Assembly (NCBI RefSeq): GCF_002487355.1
Contig: NZ_NTMG01000027.1
Location: 1-64,000, forward strand
DNA from: Candidatus Methanoperedens sp. BLZ2
Lineage (GTDB): Archaea; Halobacteriota; Methanosarcinia; Methanosarcinales; Methanoperedenaceae
Length of the DNA: 64,000 nucleotides
Direction of reading: 5' to 3'
Under the pieces are notes generated by a model, which saw only the letters and a program-made list of their open reading frames with translations, searched no databases and was not told the DNA's origin. The position numbers and the translations under genes were made by a program. Shown here one piece after another: positions 8,446 through 19,618 of this stretch (position 1 is the first letter of the stretch; every line of letters starts with the position of its first letter).

Positions 8446-8570
8446 TTTTGTATTCCTCCTGAAGCGGGCTTATCCAGAGATGTTATTACGCCAAACTTCT
8501 TTCTTGCTTTCTGGTACTCCTCCTTTTCGATATTATCCAATTTTTTATTAAATGCTTTGTCTGCTCCGTC
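8442..8570 (-). pseudogene. Remnant of a second copy of the 294-residue gene
   Basis: A minus-strand frame reads DNIEKEEYQKARKKFGVITSLDKP and then stops. It matches the middle of the neighbouring 294-residue protein (about residues 165-185) and has no start or upstream part. Its stop overlaps the next gene's start as ATGA. It is probably a deletion relic of a tandem duplication. Confidence 0.65.
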
Positions 8571-10020
8571 ATTTTTTCACCACTTCCCAAATTCCACCTT
8601 TATCAGGTCCGATTCGTTTAATAATATTGTCTTTTTTCAATTTCGCAATTTGCATCTCAATAGCCCGTGATGATAAGCCCATCTTTTCTGCAATCTCATT
8701 TGCACTGATAGCTGGATTTTCCTTTATAAGCAGAATTATTTTCTCCGAAGTTTTCTCCGAAGTTTTCTCCGAAGTTTTCTCCGAAGTTTTCTCCGAAGTT
8801 TTCTCCGAAGATTCTCCAGCCTTAACTAATGGGAATGTAATCTTATAAAAATCAATGCCACCTGAAACCACTGGTTCATCATAATACGTTTTCCAGCCAT
8901 TGATCATCTTATCAAAACCAGAACCTGCATTCTCAGCAAGTTTTATGACCCTGAAAATTCTTGTAACAATAGGATTTCTTGGCATAGTGAAATCTTCCTT
9001 CATGATGGATTCTATGTCCTTGGGCAGACTTCCAGGGTTTAAGAATTCGATCCTGTCAAGGAAAACCCTGATCCTGGGTTTCATAGGGCTGAAATAATCA
9101 GAATGCATCAAAAGATTCACCAGCGCCTCCCGTATAGCGACAAGCTGGGGCAGATTATCAGTTGCCAAACCGTCTGCCCTCAATGTAAAAGGCAGATCGA
9201 TCTTTTTCATCAGGCGCTCAAATATGCTGAAATAGAACCTGAATAGATTCTCTTCCTCAAAAAGCCTGTAACTGTACCGTGTCGGCGCATCAGAATAGGA
9301 CGTTCCCATAATCTCCAGATAATCAACCCTGAAATCTGTAAGCATACGATTGATATTGTCCTCCCTGCCAAAGACAAGCATGCCACCGATTGTGATTTTA
9401 CTATCTACCACAACCTGCAGCTTTTCAAGCAGTTCTATTGTCGACAGTTTATTATACCTGTGCTCCCGATTAACATTCTCCATATAGGTTCTATAATCTG
9501 AGATCGTTTTCCCATCCAGGTCATCAATTGTAAAATCTGTCAGTTCCTTATCCTTCAGACCAAAAGCAGAATCCCGATACATTGCATCAATTTCCACATC
9601 CGTTGCCTGCTGATCTCCGCTACCGGTTCTGATAAACGTATTTTTTCTTGAATTAAAATAAACAGGTTTCTGTTCAGATGCAGGAATATAGAAAGCAAGA
9701 ACGATTTTTCCATCAATATTGTACTTTACACACCTGACCTTTATCTTTTGATTAAACTTTTCCCCTCTAAGGGTAGTTGTAAAATCCTGCTCGATCTTTT
9801 CAGCACCCTCAACACCAATGATCTTGAAGGTCTTGTCAACCTGACTTACTCCAAAAACAAGCCAGCCACCATTTGTATTCGAAAATGCGCTGACCGTTTC
9901 AAAACTGCTTTTAGGAATGGAAGTCTTCGCCTCTTTCACCTCGAAATCTTCCCATTCAAGTTCTTCCAACCGGTCGAACAATTCCTTCTGATCCATGAAC
10001 TGATTTGTTCGCTCCTTCAT
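8569..10020 (-). CDS. AlbA_2/HATPase-HTH protein (RecG-like accessory)
   Basis: This 483-residue protein has an N-terminal Schlafen-type AlbA_2 domain (about 10-130, FETVSAFSNTNGGWLVFGVS), a C-terminal HATPase_c_4 region (about 270-390, with REALVNLLMHSDY and ENAGSGFDKM), a Ser-Glu-Lys-Thr repeat linker, and a winged helix (NEIAEKMGLSSRAIEMQIAKLK). It ends KRIGPDKGGIWEVVKK. Such proteins are common next to type I restriction systems and are often mis-named RecG; their role is uncertain, perhaps regulatory or defensive. A start at MDQKELF (residue 9) is possible. The ORF overlaps the upstream gene by 4 bp. Confidence 0.88.
   Translation of the reverse strand: MKERTNQFMDQKELFDRLEELEWEDFEVKEAKTSIPKSSFETVSAFSNTNGGWLVFGVSQVDKTFKIIGVEGAEKIEQDFTTTLRGEKFNQKIKVRCVKYNIDGKIVLAFYIPASEQKPVYFNSRKNTFIRTGSGDQQATDVEIDAMYRDSAFGLKDKELTDFTIDDLDGKTISDYRTYMENVNREHRYNKLSTIELLEKLQVVVDSKITIGGMLVFGREDNINRMLTDFRVDYLEIMGTSYSDAPTRYSYRLFEEENLFRFYFSIFERLMKKIDLPFTLRADGLATDNLPQLVAIREALVNLLMHSDYFSPMKPRIRVFLDRIEFLNPGSLPKDIESIMKEDFTMPRNPIVTRIFRVIKLAENAGSGFDKMINGWKTYYDEPVVSGGIDFYKITFPLVKAGESSEKTSEKTSEKTSEKTSEKTSEKIILLIKENPAISANEIAEKMGLSSRAIEMQIAKLKKDNIIKRIGPDKGGIWEVVKK
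8741..8810 (-). repeat. 12-bp in-frame tandem repeat encoding SEKT
   Basis: The plus-strand unit TTCTCCGAAGTT is repeated five times perfectly and a sixth time partly. It encodes consecutive SEKT tetrapeptides between the HATPase region and the winged helix. Because the unit is a multiple of three, copy-number change would alter linker length without a frameshift. Confidence 0.95.
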
Positions 10021-10406
10021 TTATCCACCACCTCCCAGTACCCGCCCCTGTCAGCGCCGATGCGCCGGAACCATGGAATTTGTGCAGCAAGTTGCTGCAT
10101 AAATTCAAAGTCGGAGTAAGTTTCAGCAAACTTTTTCATATATTTCAGGTTCCTCGGAGAAAATCCTTTCAATTCCGGGAAACTTATTTTCAAGTCATGT
10201 GATAAGCGGTCAACAATCTTGGAACCCCACCCTTCATTATTCTGCTTATCAGATATCGTTTTCCCGATCTCCCAATACAAAATAATCATTTCTGCATTTA
10301 CTGAAAGGGCAGCTTTTACCTGTGCTGTTTTTATTCGATGTTTCAGTTTATTTAATACCTCTAAATAACTAAAATCAGGTACAGATGAGTTCATAATCTT
10401 TTTCAT
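10017..10406 (-). CDS. Truncated DUF1016 (YhcG) N-domain with foreign tail
   Basis: Residues 1-112 match the N-terminal half of DUF1016/YhcG proteins (ILYWEIGKTISDKQ, GWGSKIVDRLSHDL, GFSPRNLKYMKKFAE, QQLAAQIPW). In intact members this leads into a PD-(D/E)xK nuclease domain. Here it stops at IPWF and continues into RRIGADRGGYWEVVDK, the tail seen on neighbouring ORFs. The nuclease half is absent, so the product is probably inactive as a nuclease or acts only as a DNA- or protein-binding fragment. Both ends overlap their neighbours as ATGA. A broken C-terminal half of a DUF1016 gene lies far away at 56742-57121. Confidence 0.75.
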   Translation of the reverse strand: MKKIMNSSVPDFSYLEVLNKLKHRIKTAQVKAALSVNAEMIILYWEIGKTISDKQNNEGWGSKIVDRLSHDLKISFPELKGFSPRNLKYMKKFAETYSDFEFMQQLAAQIPWFRRIGADRGGYWEVVDK

Positions 10407-10699
10407 CCCCCTGCCACCTCCCGGTACCCACCCCTGTCGGCGCCGATGCGCCAGGGCAACATCTCAAATTGTGGGGACAACATACCCACTATTCCAGAAG
10501 TAGAAATATTATCATCCATTTTGATTTTGCCTAAAAACCGCGGGTCTTCGCAATAGCCATGTTTGGTCTGGCAATTAATTTCAAAAGAGACCCTTCCAGA
10601 ACAGCCGGAACTATGAAAAGAATCAAGACTATTTACAGTGACATCATTAAGGTTAAGAATGATATCTGCATCTTCAAGATATTTTTCTTTTTTTTTCAT
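10403..10699 (-). CDS. Hypothetical ORF with the same C-terminal tail
   Basis: I do not recognise the first 80 or so residues, which include several Cys (SGCSGRVSFEINCQ, HGYCEDPRF). The last 18 read LPWRIGADRGGYREVAGG, a third copy of the locus-specific tail with Trp changed to Arg. The ATG at 10699 is preferred over upstream TTG codons because GGAGGT lies 8 bases before it. The stop overlaps the next start as ATGA. It is probably a chimera of an unknown fragment and the tail. Confidence 0.5.
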   Translation of the reverse strand: MKKKEKYLEDADIILNLNDVTVNSLDSFHSSGCSGRVSFEINCQTKHGYCEDPRFLGKIKMDDNISTSGIVGMLSPQFEMLPWRIGADRGGYREVAGG

Positions 10700-10736: not shown

Positions 10737-12287
10737 CTAAACCTTAAATCCCAGCCCTGCAAGATTCTTCCCTATCTCCCCTTCAAGTTCTCTCGACCTC
10801 TTGAACTGCCCCGCCAGTTCCCCCGTCAGCCTCGCCATCTTCTCCTCAAAAGGCTCCCCATCCTTCTCAACCTCCTCCGCGCCCACATACCGCCCCGGCG
10901 TCAGGATATGCCCATGCTTCCTGATCTCATCCAGCTTAACCGCCATGCAGAACCCCACCACGTCCTCATACTTCCCGCCCTCCCCGCGCCATGCGTGATA
11001 TGTAGAGGCTATTTTCTGGACTTCATCATCAGTTAGTTCCCTGTGCCTCCTATCCACCATAACTCCCATCTTTCGCACATCAATAAAAAGAACTTCTCCG
11101 CGCCTGTCCCTGAATTTATGGTTTTTCTTATCCCGCGAAACAAACCAGAGGCAGGCAGGGATCATGGTATTGTAGAACAATTGCGATGGCAGCGCCACCA
11201 TGCAGTCAACAAGATCAGCCTCGATGATATTCTTTCGTATCTCGCCTTCTCCCGAAGTATTTGAAGACATCGAGCCATTAGCAAGCACAAACCCTGCAAT
11301 ACCTGTTGGCGATAAATGATGAATGAAATGCTGCACCCATGCAAAGTTTGCATTCCCTGTGGGTGGGACTCCGAATTTCCATCTGATATCTCCCTTAAGA
11401 AGTTCACCTTTCCAATCGCTGTCGTTAAAAGGCGGATTGGCGATCACAAAATCCGCTTTCAGGTCCTTATGAGCGTCATTCAGGAAACTCCCTTCGTTGT
11501 TCCACTGCACATTTGCATCAATACCCCTGATCGCAAGGTTCATCTTGCACAGGCGCCAGGTGGTCCGGTTTGATTCCTGTCCATAAACCGCGATATCTCC
11601 AATTCTTCCTTCGTGCGCCTTCACGAATTTCTCACTCTGCACGAACATGCCGCCTGAACCGCAGCATGGGTCATAGATACGTCCTTTGTACGGCTCAAGC
11701 ATCTCGACCAGGGTTTTGACTATTGATCTCGGTGTATAGAATTGCCCGCCTTTCTTGCCTTCTGCGTCTGCAAATTGTCCTAAAAAATATTCATAGACCC
11801 GCCCCAGGATGTCCTTGGATCTGCTTTCATAATCCCCAAGACCAATCGTGCCTATGAGGTCTATCAGCTCTCCCAGCCTTTGCTTATCAAGAGCAGGCCG
11901 CGCATAATTCATGGAAGAAAGAACACCTTTCAGTGAAGGATTATCTCTTTCGACAGCATCCATAGCTTCGTCAATAATTTTGCCGATGATTGGCTGCTTT
12001 GCGTTTTTCTTTAGATGCTCCCACCGCGCTTCTTTTGGAACCCAGAAAACGTTTTCTGCCCTGTATTCGTCAGGATCTTCAGGGTCTGCGCCAAGGACAG
12101 ATTCTCTGGTCAAAAACTGGTTTTTCTCTTCAAAGGCATCAGAGATATATTTGAGGAATATTAAACCAAGAACCACATGCTTATATTCGGCAGCATCCAT
12201 GTTATTTCTCAGTTTATCGGCTGTTTGCCAGAGCTTTTCTTCAAAACCCAGATTTGCGCCATTGCCATTGGTTTTACCTTTTGCCAT
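10737..12287 (-). CDS. hsdM: Type I DNA methyltransferase subunit (HsdM)
   Basis: HsdM transfers methyl groups from S-adenosylmethionine to adenine N6 in the HsdS-defined target. The 516-residue protein has the helical HsdM_N domain (about 10-140, [20 protein letters not shown]) followed by the N6_Mtase domain. Motif I is [11 protein letters not shown] and the catalytic motif IV is NPPF in [12 protein letters not shown]. It is the first gene of the locus on this strand. Hsd accessory ORFs separate it from hsdS, unlike the usual hsdM-hsdS adjacency. Confidence 0.96.
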
Positions 12288-12696: not shown

Positions 12697-13278
12697 TTAC
12701 GATTTTTTCAAGCGCCATGCAAGCAAAAGTGCGCTGACCGTGAATATAACCGGAAGGAATGGTGTTGCCTTCGCCGAAGTTCCCGCAGGGGAGGGGGTCT
12801 TTTCAGGCACGGTGACGGTGTACTGCTCATCGAGGATGTAGGGGTTGACGATGGTGAATTGGATTATCTCATCATTCTTAGTTTTGAGATCATGAAACTG
12901 AACAATTATATTTATGGGTGCATTTCCATTTTTCCATGCTCCATTCGGAGCTAGTGACCATGTATATGTTTTAGACCAATTAGACTCTATGTTTAAATTG
13001 GATATCTTTTCATCTATTTTACTAGGTCCACTTAAAACGTCATAAGCAGTAGTTACTCCTGGCTCTTTTAATTTTAACGACACATGTCCATTAACTTTTG
13101 ATAATACATCCAATTTCAATTCTATGGGTTCTCCGATCTTTAATTGAACACCATTTACGGTTGCATTTTCTCCATTAAACCACGCTCTAACACTACCATA
13201 TTTATTTTCTGCACCTGCCACAATTTCAAAATTTAAAAATAATAATATTAAAATTAGAATTAATATTTTAAATTTCAT
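12697..13278 (-). CDS. Sarcinarray-like secreted surface protein
   Basis: This 193-residue protein has a strong signal peptide (about 1-22), one beta-rich domain, a Pro/Thr/Ser linker (VPEKTPSPAGTSAKATP) and a C-terminal membrane segment (FLPVIFTVSALLLAW) followed by basic residues. The phrases VRAWFNGENATVNGVQLKIG and WKNGNAPINIIVQF recall the sarcinarray family of Methanosarcinales surface proteins; that assignment is from memory of the family. It would be anchored outside the cell. It overlaps the upstream DUF7286-like gene by 4 bp and ends the operon, so it may be assembled with the pilin-like proteins. Confidence 0.72.
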   Translation of the reverse strand: MKFKILILILILLFLNFEIVAGAENKYGSVRAWFNGENATVNGVQLKIGEPIELKLDVLSKVNGHVSLKLKEPGVTTAYDVLSGPSKIDEKISNLNIESNWSKTYTWSLAPNGAWKNGNAPINIIVQFHDLKTKNDEIIQFTIVNPYILDEQYTVTVPEKTPSPAGTSAKATPFLPVIFTVSALLLAWRLKKS

Positions 13279-15947
13279 TTTTTCACCTTAAATCCTGTGG
13301 ACTCTTCGATAATTACCCAATCTTTGTCCCCTACTCCATCAACTTTACCCGGAGGTACAACTATGAAAGTTCCTGTCGTAAAATTGAATTTAATTGGTAG
13401 ATTGCTTCCAATAGATAAACCTGTTACAGGATCATACACATCCAGAACATCTTGTCTCACATACACCTGCGCCTCATGTCCGAATATCGGATCAGGATGC
13501 ACCTCATTATCCACATCCTGCACCTCAAACTTCACGAACTCACCCTCAACATCAATAGACCATGCATTGAAAGTCGCGATCCACGGCTCAAGAGATGGCA
13601 GAATATGAACTCCATTTCCTCCCAGCAAATTAATATTCCTCAATTTCAACGTATAAAGCTGCTCCTCACCGTATGGCATCTCCGCATCCAAGAAATTCGG
13701 CTCCTGGTTGATCAACAAAGTCACGCTCTCATTCCACGCCTGAAGCTTCCCTGGCTCATAAATATTCCCATTCTCATCCACATGATATGCCCTCATACTC
13801 ACAGCAAGAGGCAGCTTGAACCCGCGAGACAGGAACTTTGTAGCATCACGGTTTGCCTGCTTCACTTTATCAGGTTCGGAAAAGTTAATCTTAATCTCAT
13901 CATCAATCCTTTTACTCCCTTCAGAAAACTTCTCCCGTATCTGGTACTTCACCTGGTCAACATACCACTCCCGGATAACAGAAATCACCTTTGCACCTGC
14001 GCTATTATATTTCCCTGAATAATAATCCGGCCTATTCACATACCCCGCCTCTCTCACAGAAATCTTCCCAATCAGGTCATCCCGCGCAGCATTGATCAGG
14101 TCAGAAGGAACAGGATAATTCTCATAATTGATATCAGGGTCAAGATGAATATCATTCCTCATCCGTTCAGTAATATCATCAACCGCATAATGCGACTCCC
14201 CAGAGACCCATGAAGGTTCATCCACTGTAAACGATTTTCCATCAGTATCACCATTTAAGCCCATGTTCTTCAGGTTCGATATTTTATTAGAATCGAAAAT
14301 GTTCCTGTATTGCAGGTATGCAGGTTCAAGATTCGGGTCTATGTAATCAACCCCATTCAAGAGATTCAATCCGTATGTCACATTCTTTGAAACATAAGTC
14401 CCGAGCAAATCGTTCTTAGAAGCAAGAGATTTCCCTGCAAAATCAAGATTAATATTGGTATTCGAGTTCTCAACAGCCTTCAACGTGATCGCGACCCTAT
14501 CCATGCGCGAATCAGTAGTGGTCATATAATTATACTGCGGCACCTGCTTCGTACAACCTGCCCCGCAAGATACCGTGATCCAGTACGTGTGCCTCCAGAC
14601 ATGGTTTCGCGTCCATGTGAGTTCCCAGGTTTCACCATACAGGTTTCCGGGAATATACGAGTCTTTTGCTATCGTTCCTGTCTGCGTCATGCTGTCAGGT
14701 TCGCCCCATTCCTCAATACTGTCACTTTCCTCATATCCGTCATGAGATCCAGGATAATCCGTTGTTTGCCTTGCAACACCTGTTGCAAATAAAGTACTGT
14801 AAACCGGGATAATGACAGCGCTTATCTTCTTGTTCACGATCGAGCCCTCAGGCTTTGAATCATTGTTGAGGTAATCAGTAATAACCGTGGTATTAAAATC
14901 GTATTTTCCTTTCTGTGATTCTTCCTTTGCCTTATCAGGATCATCAGTTGAATTATACGCATCCTCCTTCGGGTCAACTTTGATAGAATTATTATCAAGC
15001 ATCACATCCTCGTATTTCTTTTTCTTTCCCGAAATCGTGTATGCGGTCTGGTTTGCATATTCAACAAGGCTCATCGGGTCAATTGAGTTAAAAACAAAAC
15101 CCTGGTCAAGAAGCAGTGCCCCGTTAAGGATCAGGGAAAGGTGCGTATTATTAACAATGTTAAGAGGCGTGTGTTTTCCATATTGCATATATCCCCGGCC
15201 CCATGTGTATGCCATGGCAAACGCAGTTGTCTCGGTCATCACTGCATTTGTACCGTTAACTCTTTGTTCGTATTCTTCAGTAAGATCATGCAAAAGCGGA
15301 TATCTGGATGTGATAAGTGTTTCCACGATTGTGTTCTCGCTCAAAAGTTCTGATTTCATATCAAGATCATTAAGATGAATTTTCACAGGTATGGATACTT
15401 TCCAGTATGTCTCATAACCATTTCCATTCTTTCCAGGTTCAAATAGCGGCGGACGTATAGTCCTGTTGAGTTTTGTTCTTATCGGAGTAATGGTTATTTT
15501 TTCCCATGAATCAGGAGGTTCCACGTTCACTGAATATTTGCCGTATGTGAAAGTATCGTACATGTAGTTTGATACCATATACTCATCAAATGTTTGATTT
15601 GTCATGGCTCGCGCCCAGTTCATGTTGAATTTATAAGTGTCACCGTTTGTTCCGTTGTAGTACTGGCTTGTATTATCAGGGTTGATAACAGGTGTTTCTC
15701 CAAGTTTCTTGAGTGCTTCCATAGCCGCATAGTTTAAAGCACGTTTCAGGTCTGCCTTTGCATATGCCAGCGCCTGGTCCGGTGCTGATATTTCAATATT
15801 TGATGACATGGTCTTTGCCATTTTTATATCCATGCGTGTGAGATTGAGTGAGATGATGGTGGACAGGATTACGAGGAATATGCCGATAACAACGAAGGGA
15901 ACGCGGGCTGAGTCATCGCGGAGGAAACGGGTTTTATTCATTTTCAT
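13275..15947 (-). CDS. Large DUF7286-like pilus-operon membrane protein
   Basis: This protein of about 890 residues has one N-terminal membrane segment right after a charged DDSARVPF motif (RVPFVVIGIFLVILSTIIS), and the rest is predicted outside the cell. The same start pattern and size mark DUF7286 proteins in haloarchaeal pilin-like operons. The ectodomain has many Asn-linked glycosylation sequons and a Cys pair region (CGAGC). I use the ATG at 15947 because it overlaps the upstream stop as ATGA; an earlier ATG at 15962 is possible. It may form the shaft-tip or scaffold part of a surface assembly, which is inference. Confidence 0.7.
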   Translation of the reverse strand: MKMNKTRFLRDDSARVPFVVIGIFLVILSTIISLNLTRMDIKMAKTMSSNIEISAPDQALAYAKADLKRALNYAAMEALKKLGETPVINPDNTSQYYNGTNGDTYKFNMNWARAMTNQTFDEYMVSNYMYDTFTYGKYSVNVEPPDSWEKITITPIRTKLNRTIRPPLFEPGKNGNGYETYWKVSIPVKIHLNDLDMKSELLSENTIVETLITSRYPLLHDLTEEYEQRVNGTNAVMTETTAFAMAYTWGRGYMQYGKHTPLNIVNNTHLSLILNGALLLDQGFVFNSIDPMSLVEYANQTAYTISGKKKKYEDVMLDNNSIKVDPKEDAYNSTDDPDKAKEESQKGKYDFNTTVITDYLNNDSKPEGSIVNKKISAVIIPVYSTLFATGVARQTTDYPGSHDGYEESDSIEEWGEPDSMTQTGTIAKDSYIPGNLYGETWELTWTRNHVWRHTYWITVSCGAGCTKQVPQYNYMTTTDSRMDRVAITLKAVENSNTNINLDFAGKSLASKNDLLGTYVSKNVTYGLNLLNGVDYIDPNLEPAYLQYRNIFDSNKISNLKNMGLNGDTDGKSFTVDEPSWVSGESHYAVDDITERMRNDIHLDPDINYENYPVPSDLINAARDDLIGKISVREAGYVNRPDYYSGKYNSAGAKVISVIREWYVDQVKYQIREKFSEGSKRIDDEIKINFSEPDKVKQANRDATKFLSRGFKLPLAVSMRAYHVDENGNIYEPGKLQAWNESVTLLINQEPNFLDAEMPYGEEQLYTLKLRNINLLGGNGVHILPSLEPWIATFNAWSIDVEGEFVKFEVQDVDNEVHPDPIFGHEAQVYVRQDVLDVYDPVTGLSIGSNLPIKFNFTTGTFIVVPPGKVDGVGDKDWVIIEESTGFKVKK

Positions 15948-17155
15948 TTCCTTTTCTCCCATAAAGACAATGTCGCCTGCGCGCGATTAATGTTTATTCG
16001 TGAAAAAACTTCAATAATGATCCTGTCTTTTGCCTCAACTATCGTGATGGCATTATTCACATACATATCCGCAAGTTCAGTAGAGAATGATCTGATCTCT
16101 TCACCGGTTGCAGCCTGTATTTCTTCTTTTGCAGCTACTTTAAGATAATCTTTGAGTTTATCTGCCATTGTTCCTGATAAGTCGGCGCTCACGTTATTCA
16201 GTGTATTATTTATCCCGTCATTTATTTCCTGGTTAAAGGATGTTTCAGAATCCAGCAGGAGGCCATTGACATCTTCGATCATCTTGTTCCTGGACTCATC
16301 AAGAACTGGGCCCAGCTTTTGATCTACTATCAGGTCAACGGAATCATCGACTGTATCATTAATTATATTATTTATTTTATTAGAGATCTCCATCTCTATC
16401 ACATTCCGGGCCGATTCATTGTTTTTCAATTCTTCCAGTGTAAATGAAAAGTTTCCGAACCTGCTGTTATTGAAATTATTCTCGATAATATCCTCCACTT
16501 GTTTTCGTGAAATTACGATATGATAAGGCATCGTGATATATGCTGATTCCACGTATGCATTATCAGGTACAGGTTCCCCGATATCCAGGTCTCCCCCGAT
16601 GGGTACGCCGGTAAAAGGCCGCCACAATACTGTGAAATTATAACCATACCTGTCCCCGATCTGCTCATCAAGATAATTTTTCATGATACTTTTTGAACTG
16701 TTTGAATAATTTGTCATCATGAAATTCAATTGTGTTCTTGTCCCATTGTAATAAATAACCCACTGCACTGCCGCATTTTCAGCCGCAATATCAGAAAAAG
16801 TCTTATGTCTTAATTCTTTTCCCGCGATTATTTTTTTACCCGTTGTAAAAACCGGGGAATTATTCAATGGGCCGGCAACTGCATCCAGCTGGTCGCCTGC
16901 TACTATGTATTCAAATTCATACACCTTTCCATTCAGAAGCGTGAGCAGTGTATCCCCCGAATTCTCCTGGCTCTTTGATTCAAGCGCCGATTTGATCTGG
17001 GTGTTGCCTGTTATTGACGGAAGAAGTATCATTGCTGAAATAGAGATCATGATAAGGAACAGGAATATATCAAAAGTTGTAGAGAAACCCCCTGTATCTT
17101 TATAAAAACCGTTCTTCCTCTTCCCCTTCCTGTTCTGCTTCACTTTCATCATCAT
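15944..17155 (-). CDS. Pilin-like operon membrane protein, coiled coil
   Basis: This protein of about 403 residues has a basic N-terminus, a DTGGFSTTFD motif and one hydrophobic segment (IFLFLIMISISAMILLPSI), then an extracellular part with a long helical stretch near residues 240-370 (repeated NNIINDTVDDSVD-like heptads). The layout, a short cytoplasmic tail and single N-terminal anchor, is that of archaeal minor pilin-like proteins. The ATG at 17155 overlaps the upstream stop as ATGA. I know no function for it. Confidence 0.6.
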   Translation of the reverse strand: MMMKVKQNRKGKRKNGFYKDTGGFSTTFDIFLFLIMISISAMILLPSITGNTQIKSALESKSQENSGDTLLTLLNGKVYEFEYIVAGDQLDAVAGPLNNSPVFTTGKKIIAGKELRHKTFSDIAAENAAVQWVIYYNGTRTQLNFMMTNYSNSSKSIMKNYLDEQIGDRYGYNFTVLWRPFTGVPIGGDLDIGEPVPDNAYVESAYITMPYHIVISRKQVEDIIENNFNNSRFGNFSFTLEELKNNESARNVIEMEISNKINNIINDTVDDSVDLIVDQKLGPVLDESRNKMIEDVNGLLLDSETSFNQEINDGINNTLNNVSADLSGTMADKLKDYLKVAAKEEIQAATGEEIRSFSTELADMYVNNAITIVEAKDRIIIEVFSRININRAQATLSLWEKRK

Positions 17156-17619
17156 TTTCTCCATATTTTAACAGTAAGTATACCTGGCTGCTCTTCTACA
17201 TCATTGAACCTGACCGTTACTGGTATTGAAGCAGAGACACCGATCTTTGATTCGCTTAAGTCCGGGTTTTTGATAATGATGTTATATGCCCTGTTTTCTG
17301 AATTTGAATCGATCTTGAACATGAAATTGTAATAAGAGCCGTATTGCTGGAATATTTCAGCAGGGTCGAGTTTTTCCATTTTTTCCGAATCAATCACACC
17401 AGGGTAGCCGCCAGTCAATGCACTATCCCTGCCAAGCTTCTTAGCAAGATTTGCTGCATCCTCGTAATGCCCTGCGATGAAGGATTTTTCCTGGTATGTC
17501 GTATAAGCCTGGGTAATGACGGCGATAAAAACAATAAATCCAACAACAGCCAGAGCCATAGCTGGAAGCTCAGTATATGGCTCTATCATTCCTTTTTCAT
17601 CACTGGTAAACGAAGACAT
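17152..17619 (-). CDS. Pilin-like operon membrane protein, 155 aa
   Basis: The N-terminus has DEKGMIEPYTELPAMALAVV followed by the rest of a membrane segment (GFIVFIAVITQAY), then an extracellular domain. The charged residues just before a hydrophobic helix resemble class III (type IV pilin-like) signals, although a canonical prepilin peptidase site is not clear. It overlaps its upstream neighbour by about 20 bp and its downstream neighbour by 4 bp, which implies coupled translation. Confidence 0.6.
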   Translation of the reverse strand: MSSFTSDEKGMIEPYTELPAMALAVVGFIVFIAVITQAYTTYQEKSFIAGHYEDAANLAKKLGRDSALTGGYPGVIDSEKMEKLDPAEIFQQYGSYYNFMFKIDSNSENRAYNIIIKNPDLSESKIGVSASIPVTVRFNDVEEQPGILTVKIWRK

Positions 17620-18256
17620 AATCTCTTTTTTGAATTTCCGTTTGATTCTTATAATGGATTATTACCTTTTCGATGAACAAAGGCTTATTAAGGTCAGGGA
17701 TAAAAGGGCTCACAGCAAGCTCTTTTCGTGTTGATTCAAATATCGTGTCCACTTTTTGTTTATCAACCTCAATATCAAGAGGACTTGATACGTCCCCATT
17801 TCTTCCGCCACCTATCGCATCGCTTACATATTTTCGAAAACCGGATGTATTGCTCCAAATACTGTTCGGGGGATAGACATGCGTTATCACAGGTTCGGCA
17901 TGTATCAGTTCCCTGTCTCCCCATATGGGAGAGCTAAGATTCGAGTGTACAGTAATATATTCCGTGGATATTTCTATTCTCATATCCCTGTTATTCTCTT
18001 CGAAAACATAGTTGTATTTATATCCCGGTATAGTAATACTGTCAATAGCTTCTATTTTTGAGGTTATATCAGAGGCTATGGTATCAAGATCCAACCTGCT
18101 CTCCCGCTCCTGGAACATCGGGTATATTTTAAAAGCTGCAAGAAGCAGTATTGCTGCAAAAAGGATCAATCCGATCCGCGTAATAAAAAAATCAGCCCAT
18201 GCTCTATCATTTCGTATGAAAAATGCAAATCTTCCGGTTTTATTCGATCTTGACAT
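17600..18256 (-). CDS. Pilin-like operon membrane protein, 218 aa
   Basis: The protein starts with a basic tail and RAWADFFITRIGLILF, then one membrane segment (ILFAAILLLAAFKIYP) and an extracellular beta-rich domain of about 160 residues. The RAWADF-type motif before the helix recalls DUF728x pilin-like proteins of haloarchaea. It overlaps both neighbours, so the operon is very compact. Confidence 0.6.
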   Translation of the reverse strand: MSRSNKTGRFAFFIRNDRAWADFFITRIGLILFAAILLLAAFKIYPMFQERESRLDLDTIASDITSKIEAIDSITIPGYKYNYVFEENNRDMRIEISTEYITVHSNLSSPIWGDRELIHAEPVITHVYPPNSIWSNTSGFRKYVSDAIGGGRNGDVSSPLDIEVDKQKVDTIFESTRKELAVSPFIPDLNKPLFIEKVIIHYKNQTEIQKRDYVFVYQ

Positions 18257-18773
18257 AGGTACCGTTTTTGTTTTTTACAAGTTCCATCGTCAGGTCATAC
18301 TCTCCGGGATAAAGCACGAACGGCCTGTCCAATCCCGTAGTGTTTGAGGAAAAACGGGCGATCGATGATCTTGTTTGCACCCGGCCGTCATTCAGGACAT
18401 AATAGAATACATTATCAGTGTGCAGATTTCCTGATTCCGGAGGACTAACATTACCATCAGTGGTAGGCATTCCCCCAAAAACAACAAATGCGGCATTATC
18501 CGGTATTTCTACATGTATGTTTTCCACAGTTCCTGAGAAGTCTGCAGGATCATCGATATCCTGCGCTCCTCCCTGGATATATATCAAAGAAGCGCGCTTA
18601 TCGATCAGATCAAGCTGCCCTTTGAGCTTTTTTTCATTTGCATTGTCTATGAAAAGATATACAGCCTTTGCAGACAGGCCGATAATAACCGATAAAAGAA
18701 TAACAGTAACCACAAGTCGCATTGGCAGGCCTTCGGCAGCTGAGTCATTATCAAGGAAATTATCAGGGGTCAT
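18240..18773 (-). CDS. Pilin-like operon membrane protein, 177 aa (first gene)
   Basis: The N-terminus reads DNDSAAEGLPMRLVVTVILL and leads directly into one membrane segment (to about residue 45); an extracellular domain follows. It is the first gene of the six-gene overlapping operon that ends at 12697. No clear Shine-Dalgarno site precedes its ATG. It starts 62 bp after the stop of the vapC gene on the same strand, so read-through from the vapBC promoter is possible. Confidence 0.6.
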   Translation of the reverse strand: MTPDNFLDNDSAAEGLPMRLVVTVILLSVIIGLSAKAVYLFIDNANEKKLKGQLDLIDKRASLIYIQGGAQDIDDPADFSGTVENIHVEIPDNAAFVVFGGMPTTDGNVSPPESGNLHTDNVFYYVLNDGRVQTRSSIARFSSNTTGLDRPFVLYPGEYDLTMELVKNKNGTYVKIE

Positions 18774-18835: not shown

Positions 18836-19243
18836 TTATCTATCTTTCAAAAGGTCTATTCTGTTAATACCCTTTAAATCATCGAAGTGAGCGTCATCAG
18901 AAACAATCTCATTTAAATCATTCTTGACCATAGTCGCATAATGAATTGCATCCCCCAGTTTCCAGCCTTTATCCGGCATCGGAAGTGCTTCTGTGAAAAT
19001 TTCCGGATTAAAGGGTAGCAGCATCACTCCATGCTGGTTTATCTCTTTCAATATTCCTGCTATTTTTTGTCCTGAAAGCTTTTTGCCTTTCAGGAATGCA
19101 TATATCTCGACCATTGTATGAACAGATGTCGCTGCGGTCTCCTTTCCTGAAGCTACAGCTTCAAGGTACATCTGGGCTGCGTCTCCCAGCCTGTTATCCC
19201 CTATAAGGTTGGCTATGAATATGTTTGTATCTACGTATTTCAT
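18836..19243 (-). CDS. vapC: VapC-family PIN-domain toxin (pair 2)
   Basis: This 135-residue PIN-domain ribonuclease starts MKYVDTNIFIANLIGD, with the first catalytic Asp; Glu appears in HTMVEIYAFL, and later Asp residues in LGDAIHYATM and IVSDDAHFDDL. It belongs to a different VapC subfamily from the other two in the window. The start overlaps the vapB stop by 4 bp. Confidence 0.88.
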   Translation of the reverse strand: MKYVDTNIFIANLIGDNRLGDAAQMYLEAVASGKETAATSVHTMVEIYAFLKGKKLSGQKIAGILKEINQHGVMLLPFNPEIFTEALPMPDKGWKLGDAIHYATMVKNDLNEIVSDDAHFDDLKGINRIDLLKDR

Positions 19244-19476
19244 TCCGCCCCCATAGCCGCATATCCTTCTTCAATACCCTCATCTATTGTGCCTTCATGC
19301 CTGATTATCCCGTGAACTCTCTTTACAGACTGGGTACTTCCACGGTGAGGATAAAGTACTGCCCTCCCTTTCTCGATAACGAATTCCACAGTTTCCCCTA
19401 TATTGATCCCCAGTGCCTTACGAACATCTTTTGGAATAACTACAAGATATTTTTCATGGACTTTAACTTCAGTCAT
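19240..19476 (-). CDS. vapB: VapB-family AbrB antitoxin (pair 2)
   Basis: The likely start is the ATG at 19476 (MTEVKVHEKYLVVIPKDVRK), giving 78 residues; the longer frame upstream crosses the promoter and is not protein-like. The SpoVT-AbrB domain occupies residues 1-48 and the C-terminal part should bind VapC. A perfect 16-bp palindrome lies 7 bases before the start and is probably the autoregulatory operator. Confidence 0.85.
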   Translation of the reverse strand: MTEVKVHEKYLVVIPKDVRKALGINIGETVEFVIEKGRAVLYPHRGSTQSVKRVHGIIRHEGTIDEGIEEGYAAMGAE

Positions 19477-19483
19477 AGTTAAA

Positions 19484-19499
19484 CGTATAACGTTATACG
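19484..19499 (-). promoter_or_regulatory. Perfect palindrome, candidate VapB operator
   Basis: CGTATAACGTTATACG is identical to its own reverse complement. It ends 7 bases before the vapB start codon. Its position would let the antitoxin complex block transcription or, if the mRNA is near-leaderless, initiation. Confidence 0.6.
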
Positions 19500-19618
19500 A
19501 TAAAAACTTTATTGTGTCATGAAGACCCTCCTGATAAAAACCACCTTTCATCATAACATAATTATTTAACCTTTGATGCAAGTACTGATTTCAATGATTT
19601 ATATAAAGAGGTAGGACT

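What the first reader, a model, noticed from the sequence alone, without database searches (positions are those of the whole stretch)
12697..18773. Six-gene overlapping surface-assembly operon with a sarcinarray-like protein
Five single-anchor pilin-like proteins including a DUF7286-type large protein and a secreted sarcinarray-like protein overlap by 4-20 bp each. This joins a haloarchaeal-type pilin-like set to a Methanosarcinales surface-array family, without the assembly ATPase or platform protein in view. They may build one surface structure together.
Basis: partly seen in the sequence, partly recalled or inferred. Interest (0 to 1): 0.6.

Follow-up and report, generated by a model that had tools for sequence, protein, structure and literature searches.

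The report
Archaeal pilus operon with swappable tips
This is the pilin half of a type-IV-pilus-like machine in a methane-eating archaeon (its motor genes sit elsewhere in the genome), and its last two genes carry a surface tip that looks exchanged between copies and species like an interchangeable cassette, a trick known from bacterial surface proteins but which I did not find described for archaeal pili.

Summary
The six overlapping minus-strand genes are real. A-B-C-D-E match, gene by gene, the haloarchaeal cluster DUF7311-[PilB-PilC]-DUF7283-DUF7285-DUF7284-DUF7286, but PilB/PilC are missing between A and B. The cognate PilB-PilC pair is in the same genome on contig C28; across 186 Methanosarcinales genomes its presence follows D or E (Fisher p=7e-35). 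F (sarcinarray) lies directly 3' of E; E and F co-occur in 85 genomes (p=2e-36).

The larger result: E's C-terminal tip plus F behaves as an exchangeable cassette. This genome has five E-F pairs. Their E bodies are nearly alike (dS 0.10-0.32), but after E residue 756 divergence jumps (tip dS 0.5-2.2; F 0.6-1.3). Tip and F trees reject grouping by genome (AU p=0.003, 0.0007); the body tree does not. At the orthologous locus of a sister genome the flanks are 88-95% identical in protein, the tip 70%, F 59%. In Methanosarcina and ANME-2, full E-F is followed by tandem arrays of 5'-truncated E' plus F', still open and constrained, with E-derived direct repeats at cassette edges. No switching, filament or adhesion was observed; function is inferred.

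The parts
18240..18773 (-). Gene A: single-anchor pilin-like protein, DUF7311-like (below the Pfam cut-off, identified by position in the cluster)
   Evidence: (PF23993 1.2e-4)
17600..18256 (-). Gene B: single-anchor pilin-like protein, in the position of haloarchaeal DUF7283 (no Pfam match of its own)
17152..17619 (-). Gene C: single-anchor pilin-like protein, in the position of DUF7285 (own match only E=0.24); class III prepilin motif KGMI
15944..17164 (-). Gene D: DUF7284 pilin-like protein; only copy in the genome
   Evidence: (PF23955 1.3e-8)
13695..15962 (-). Gene E, body (residues 1-756): DUF7286 with N-terminal anchor; nearly alike in the five genomic copies (dS 0.10-0.32 over the stretch shared by each pair)
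13695..13745 (-). E segment LQAWNESVTLLINQEPN (residues 740-756) at the body/tip junction; copies of this DNA recur at the F stop codon of copies C28, C46 and C45L, but not downstream of F in the window copy
13275..13694 (-). Gene E, tip (residues 757-895): most of the C-terminal all-beta region; variable, exchanged part
12697..13278 (-). Gene F: sarcinarray (MAST) protein; signal peptide, Ig-like beta domain, linker, C-terminal membrane helix
12847..13694 (-). Inferred exchangeable cassette: E tip plus F signal peptide and beta domain; the F tail (12846-12697) is again conserved among the other copies

Best explanation
A-F encode the pilin-like half of an archaeal type-IV-pilus-like system of the haloarchaeal PilB2/PilC2 kind. 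A-E are inserted and assembled by a dedicated PilB ATPase and PilC platform encoded elsewhere in the genome (contig C28). E is a large single-anchor pilin-like protein whose C-terminal beta region, together with the anchored Ig-like protein F, forms the exposed variable tip. The tip of E and F form one recombining cassette: homologous recombination between many E-F copies keeps the E body alike and lets the cassette be exchanged among copies, loci and species. In Methanosarcina and ANME-2 the spare cassettes are tandem 5'-truncated E'-F' units behind a full-length E-F. The likely use is to change binding specificity or escape recognition (partner cells, surfaces or viruses). SHOWN by computation: gene order, cognate PilB/PilC, co-occurrence, copy number, sharp junction, incongruent trees, constrained truncated copies, direct repeats. 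INFERRED: export by this PilB/PilC, tip location, E-F contact, switching in living cells, adhesive or recognition function.
For: Gene-by-gene synteny with haloarchaeal DUF7311-PilB-PilC-DUF7283-DUF7285-DUF7284-DUF7286. PilB on C28 scores 231-278 bits against the haloarchaeal cluster PilBs, the other PilBs of this genome at most 117; its neighbour matches the haloarchaeal PilC profile at 4e-77. Presence of this PilB tracks D or E: 99 both, 73 neither, 14 discordant (p=7e-35); in genus g1 15 of 15 E-positive genomes have it and 15 of 16 E-negative genomes lack it. Five E-F pairs in this genome but one D. Synonymous divergence jumps at residue 756. AU test: own-genome copies as one group not rejected for body (p=0.086), rejected for tip (p=0.0027) and F (p=0.0007). 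Orthologous locus in G045: A-D dS 0.20-0.24, hsdM 0.41, E body 0.37, E tip 0.85, F 1.37; the window tip is closer to its own C28 copy (83%) and to a G064 copy with other downstream neighbours (84%) than to its G045 orthologue (70.5%). Truncated E' have dN/dS 0.14-0.41 against the main E, and open frames that neutral drift would break (P at most 0.005 each). Direct repeats between E and the DNA after F score up to 368 against shuffle maxima of about 20-34. One array-end F in G152 is nearly identical to the main F (dS 0.06) while most others differ at dS 0.5-1.2.
Against: No expression, proteomic, filament or switching data. The window genome is a draft assembly, and four of its E pieces end at contig ends. 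In the window's own genome the E-F copies appear full-length, so a 'silent donor' reading applies only to other genera. The window's F lacks the trailing E repeat. Cassette start points differ between clades (window-E residues about 437-634 in ANME-2, 757 here, inside a clade-specific insertion in Methanosarcina), which argues against a site-specific recombinase and for plain homologous recombination. The data cannot say whether the body is homogenised or the tip is swapped; both need recombination ending near the junction. In one genus (g22) F occurs with no E, D or this PilB. Tip location rests on fold and analogy only.
Confidence: 0.62

Rival explanations
1. The same pilus system, but the E tip and F diversify in place by strong selection (old balanced alleles) without exchange of cassettes; arrays are ordinary tandem duplications that decay.
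For: The tip and F are surface-type domains; some array E' remnants in G152 have decayed to 64-bp pieces; F-F pairs reach dN/dS 0.74 within loci.
Against: Synonymous sites jump about 2-10 fold at a sharp junction inside one gene, which selection on protein does not give without recombination; dN/dS stays at or below 0.43 in the tip and F beta domain of the own copies; truncated E' frames stay open and constrained; tip and F trees are scattered across species.
Confidence: 0.2
2. A-F is a secretion or DNA-uptake type pseudopilus rather than an adhesive pilus; the variable tip and F handle substrates.
For: No major pilin gene was sought or found here; the five pilin-like genes are all of minor-pilin type; type IV filament machines include uptake and secretion forms (general knowledge).
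Against: A variable, anchored Ig-like tip protein fits recognition better; the related haloarchaeal regulon is described as a pilus system (PMC4858521, PMC9856176).
Confidence: 0.25
3. The variation is made by a diversity-generating retroelement or by a dedicated site-specific recombinase (shufflon-like).
For: Variation is confined to the C-terminal part of a surface protein, as in those systems; the window genome has four reverse transcriptases.
Against: None of the reverse transcriptases is on an E-F contig; the cassettes are about 850 bp with indels and synonymous changes; arrays are in direct orientation and their breakpoints differ by clade. Recombinase genes near the loci were not searched for by profile.
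Confidence: 0.04
4. The mosaic is an assembly or binning artefact of a metagenome.
For: Draft genome; E pieces coincide with contig ends.
Against: Arrays are present in single-contig Methanosarcina genomes (G151, G154, G156, G157); the window locus itself is contiguous and matches G045 on both sides.
Confidence: 0.05

Closest known systems
Archaeal type IV pili of subclade 4F (PMC4858521) / haloarchaeal pilB2-pilC2 regulon next to cetZ2 (PMC9856176)
   Same: Same kind of PilB (cysteine-rich N-terminus), PilC, and a set of single-anchor pilin-like proteins in the same order; an S-layer-like protein is often reported in such loci.
   Different: PilB/PilC are split off to another contig; F (sarcinarray) is added 3' of E; E-F is multicopy and recombining. 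That the DUF7283-7286 cluster is the pilB2/C2 regulon is my inference from the papers' descriptions.
Neisseria pilE/pilS antigenic variation (general knowledge)
   Same: Truncated partial copies that keep open frames and can feed variable sequence into a full gene by homologous recombination.
   Different: Here the cassette spans the end of one gene plus a whole second gene and lies in tandem behind the full copy in some genera; in the window genome the copies are dispersed and full-length; switching not observed.
PilV shufflon of conjugative plasmids (PMC9045228)
   Same: Type IV pilus minor pilin with a conserved body and exchangeable C-terminal adhesive tips.
   Different: No inverted cassettes seen; variable breakpoints; no recombinase identified.
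TIGR04209 sarcinarray / MAST-domain proteins
   Same: F scores above the family cut-off; tandem arrays in Methanosarcina.
   Different: The family name gives no function; here it is tied to DUF7286 and to a specific PilB/PilC.

Membership tests
Archaeal T4P, haloarchaeal PilB2/PilC2 (subclade 4F) kind | PilB ATPase of this lineage | tested here: met
   C28 PilB 231-278 bits to haloarchaeal cluster PilBs, other PilBs of the genome at most 117; five cysteines in residues 35-77. Placement in the published ATPase tree was not done.
Archaeal T4P, haloarchaeal PilB2/PilC2 (subclade 4F) kind | PilC/TadC platform next to PilB | tested here: met
   647-aa neighbour, haloarchaeal PilC profile 4e-77; pair conserved in Methanosarcina.
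Archaeal T4P, haloarchaeal PilB2/PilC2 (subclade 4F) kind | Syntenic pilin set DUF7311-DUF7283-DUF7285-DUF7284-DUF7286 | tested here: met
   Same order in the window; but only D and E pass Pfam cut-offs, A and C are below, B has no match.
Archaeal T4P, haloarchaeal PilB2/PilC2 (subclade 4F) kind | PilB/PilC within the pilin operon (haloarchaeal arrangement) | tested here: not met
   Absent between A and B in the window; on contig C28. Pilins encoded in trans are reported for other archaeal T4P (PMC4858521).
Archaeal T4P, haloarchaeal PilB2/PilC2 (subclade 4F) kind | Dedicated major pilin (arCOG02981) | not tested
   No arCOG profile available.
Archaeal T4P, haloarchaeal PilB2/PilC2 (subclade 4F) kind | Builds a filament | not testable with these tools
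   Needs microscopy.
DUF7286 (PF23957) | Score above gathering cut-off | tested here: met
   E: 143.3 bits against 27.
Sarcinarray (TIGR04209) | Score above curated cut-off | tested here: met
   F: 98.8 bits against 45; MAST domain TIGR04204 61.6 against 150, below cut-off for the window copy, above it in Methanosarcina copies.
PGF-CTERM archaeosortase substrate | PGF-CTERM C-terminal signal | tested here: not met
   No TIGR04126 match in the window F; two ANME-2 F copies match weakly, 16.6 and 19.7 bits against 24.5. An exosortase/archaeosortase gene exists on C40.
Silent-cassette antigenic variation (pilE/pilS type) | Truncated donor copies that keep open frames | tested here: met
   In Methanosarcina and ANME-2 arrays; not seen in the window genome.
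Silent-cassette antigenic variation (pilE/pilS type) | Exchange between donor and expressed copy in living cells | not testable with these tools
   Only indirect: mosaic dS, incongruent trees.
Shufflon | Inverted cassettes switched by a site-specific recombinase | tested here: not met
   Cassettes are in direct orientation with clade-dependent breakpoints; recombinase genes not searched.
Diversity-generating retroelement | Reverse transcriptase beside the variable gene | tested here: not met
   Reverse transcriptases only on contigs C84, C44, C68, C15, none of which carries E-F.

The most novel reading that the evidence does not exclude
Methane-cycling archaea carry a dedicated, programmed tip-switching system on a type-IV-pilus-like machine: a conserved pilin-like shaft protein (DUF7286) and its partner (sarcinarray) exchange a joint cassette from genomic stores, giving single lineages a changing repertoire of surface recognition, for example for partner bacteria, surfaces or escape from viruses.
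Probability: 0.35. Interest if true: 0.85.

Novelty: new variant of a known kind. Interest (0 to 1): 0.68.

Why it matters
It gives two uncharacterised families (DUF7286, sarcinarray) a machine, a motor and a joint role, and names the exact PilB/PilC to delete. If the cassette exchange is real it would be, as far as my limited paper search shows, the first recombination-based tip variation described for an archaeal pilus, and it would make partner choice and surface recognition in methanogens and ANME archaea testable in genetically tractable Methanosarcina.

Tried and rejected
C33 and C29 PilB/PilC were first taken as the motor; rejected because both are far less like the haloarchaeal cluster PilB than C28, and C33-type PilC relatives are present in 172 of 186 genomes whether or not the operon is. 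A site-specific recombination site was considered; rejected because repeat positions differ by clade. DGR rejected. Viral carriage: one scan of viral contigs found no relative. Whole-E fold search in the PDB gave nothing significant, so the fold gives no function. F resembles many Ig/PapD-like beta domains (best E 6e-5, TM 0.43), too generic to name a function. The first genome-contig scan failed for lack of conserved stretches. Paper searches on archaeal cassette or antigenic variation found nothing on point; subscription papers are not held. Correlated evolution of E tip with its own F was not tested formally.
Full report
WHAT IS THERE. Six minus-strand ORFs overlap by 17, 20, 13, 19 and 4 bp at 18773..12697. 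A-E have one N-terminal hydrophobic segment each. Pfam: D DUF7284 1.3e-8, E DUF7286 1.5e-41, A weakly DUF7311, C only E=0.24 to DUF7285, B none. F is TIGR04209 sarcinarray, 98.8 bits.

WHOSE GENOME. The genome is G000, 3.7 Mb in 85 contigs, window on C47. I infer that the window is Methanoperedens; the record of the window itself is not named.

THE SYSTEM. Haloarchaeal loci show DUF7311-PilB-PilC-DUF7283-DUF7285-DUF7284-DUF7286, with no F. The window has the same order without PilB/PilC. Another family (L103-L105) has A-B-C-D-E-F like the window. In several Methanosarcinaceae A-D stand divergent from, or far from, E-F. Among the PilBs of this genome only that on C28 (28094-30382, minus strand) is close to the haloarchaeal cluster PilBs: 231-278 bits against at most 117 for C33, C29 and C14. 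Its neighbour matches the haloarchaeal PilC profile at 4e-77 though Pfam T2SSF does not see it. This fits what Makarova et al. 2016 call subclade 4F (PMC4858521), with a cysteine-rich ATPase N-terminus and a frequent S-layer-like protein, and the pilB2/C2 regulon near cetZ2 (PMC9856176); I did not place the ATPase in their tree.

CO-OCCURRENCE. In 186 genomes of the order, E is found in 90, D in 95, F in 93, this PilB in 107. E and F together 85 (p=2e-36); D-or-E and PilB together 99, neither 73, discordant 14 (p=7e-35); in genus g1, 15 of 15 E-positive genomes carry the PilB and 15 of 16 E-negative lack it. These p values ignore shared ancestry. By contrast C33-type PilC relatives are in 172 of 186 genomes. 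Exception: genus g22 has an F-like gene alone.

E-F IS A MULTICOPY MODULE. The genome has one D but five E-F pairs: C47 (window), C28, C46, and two at the ends of C45; E starts that fit the latter lie at the ends of C6 and C73. Copies start alike at FLRDDSARVPF. E bodies share dS 0.10-0.32, then at residue 756 (window 13695) dS rises to 0.50-2.17 in the tip and 0.60-1.30 in the F beta domain, falling again to 0.28-0.58 in the F tail among the four other copies; the window copy stays at 1.3-1.75 there (DNA profile). dN/dS is 0.09-0.58. A permutation test finds unusually long shared runs between copies, as gene conversion leaves; uneven constraint along the gene also adds to such runs.

TREES AND ORTHOLOGUES. 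With the body, own copies and sister G045 form one supported group and grouping of the own copies is not rejected (p=0.086). With the tip and with F it is rejected (p=0.0027 and 0.0007); F of the own copies scatters as if shuffled among species. At the orthologous locus of G045, A-D are 88-94% and hsdM 95% identical, E body 88%, tip 70.5%, F 59%, with dS 0.20-0.24, 0.41, 0.37, 0.85 and 1.37. The same island appears at C45R against its syntenic locus in G070.

ARRAYS. In Methanosarcina and ANME-2, E-F is accompanied by tandem units of a 5'-truncated E' and an F', also in single-contig genomes, where a full-length E-F leads the array. Thirty-four of 93 F-bearing genomes list two or more F (my count). 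Cassette edges are marked by direct repeats: a stretch inside E recurs just after F, scoring up to 368 against shuffle maxima of about 20-34. In the own genome E-derived DNA (NESVTLLINQEPNYLDA) recurs at the F stop of C46 and C45L, and a shorter piece at C28, and this stretch ends where the own copies begin to diverge. Truncated E' show dN/dS 0.14-0.41 against the main E; eleven such frames would stay open under neutral drift with P at most 0.005 each. The simulation assumes half of the divergence fell on the orphan, and the frames were found as ORFs, so some bias remains.

STRUCTURE. E folds with good confidence (mean pLDDT 81): long N-terminal helices, mixed body, all-beta C-terminal region from about 716 to 895; no PDB match. 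F: signal helix, eleven-strand beta domain, linker, membrane helix, pLDDT 85, generic Ig/PapD-like matches.

READING. Recombination has exchanged material with an edge near residue 756; whether bodies are homogenised or tips swapped cannot be told apart. The most economical view is a pilus-like machine with an exchangeable recognition tip. Export, tip position, E-F contact and real-time switching are inferred. I found no description of this in the held papers, which is a limited search.

Noticed in passing
window 8739-8810: Six perfect copies of a 12-bp unit inside the coding frame of the 483-aa ORF 8569-10020 (repeated SEKT), a possible length-variable stretch.
   Followed up: no
window 10028-10066 and 10414-10452: A 39-bp near-repeat (92%) at the 3' ends of two neighbouring ORFs that both end in RIGADRGGY; the next gene ends in a similar RIGPDKGG, as if C-terminal ends had been duplicated.
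   Followed up: no
window 18836-19581: PIN-domain gene and a small gene before it that looks like an AbrB-type antitoxin, directly upstream of A; missing in G064 and METP1 (G070), where homology skips from 18845 to about 19550.
   Followed up: partly
window 10737-12287: Type I restriction-modification HsdM gene directly downstream of F, conserved at that place in G045 (95% protein identity).
   Followed up: partly
L116 (G000:C33): A second PilB-PilC pair with CxxCH cytochrome-like genes a few kb away, related PilC present in nearly all genomes of the order; no pilin genes adjacent.
   Followed up: partly
L223, L224 (g22 genomes): F-like MAST protein standing alone, in genomes without DUF7286, DUF7284 or the PilB of this system.
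   Followed up: partly
L225 5535-7214: An F-like domain at the start of a longer 559-aa protein that ends in what looks like a dockerin-type region.
   Followed up: no
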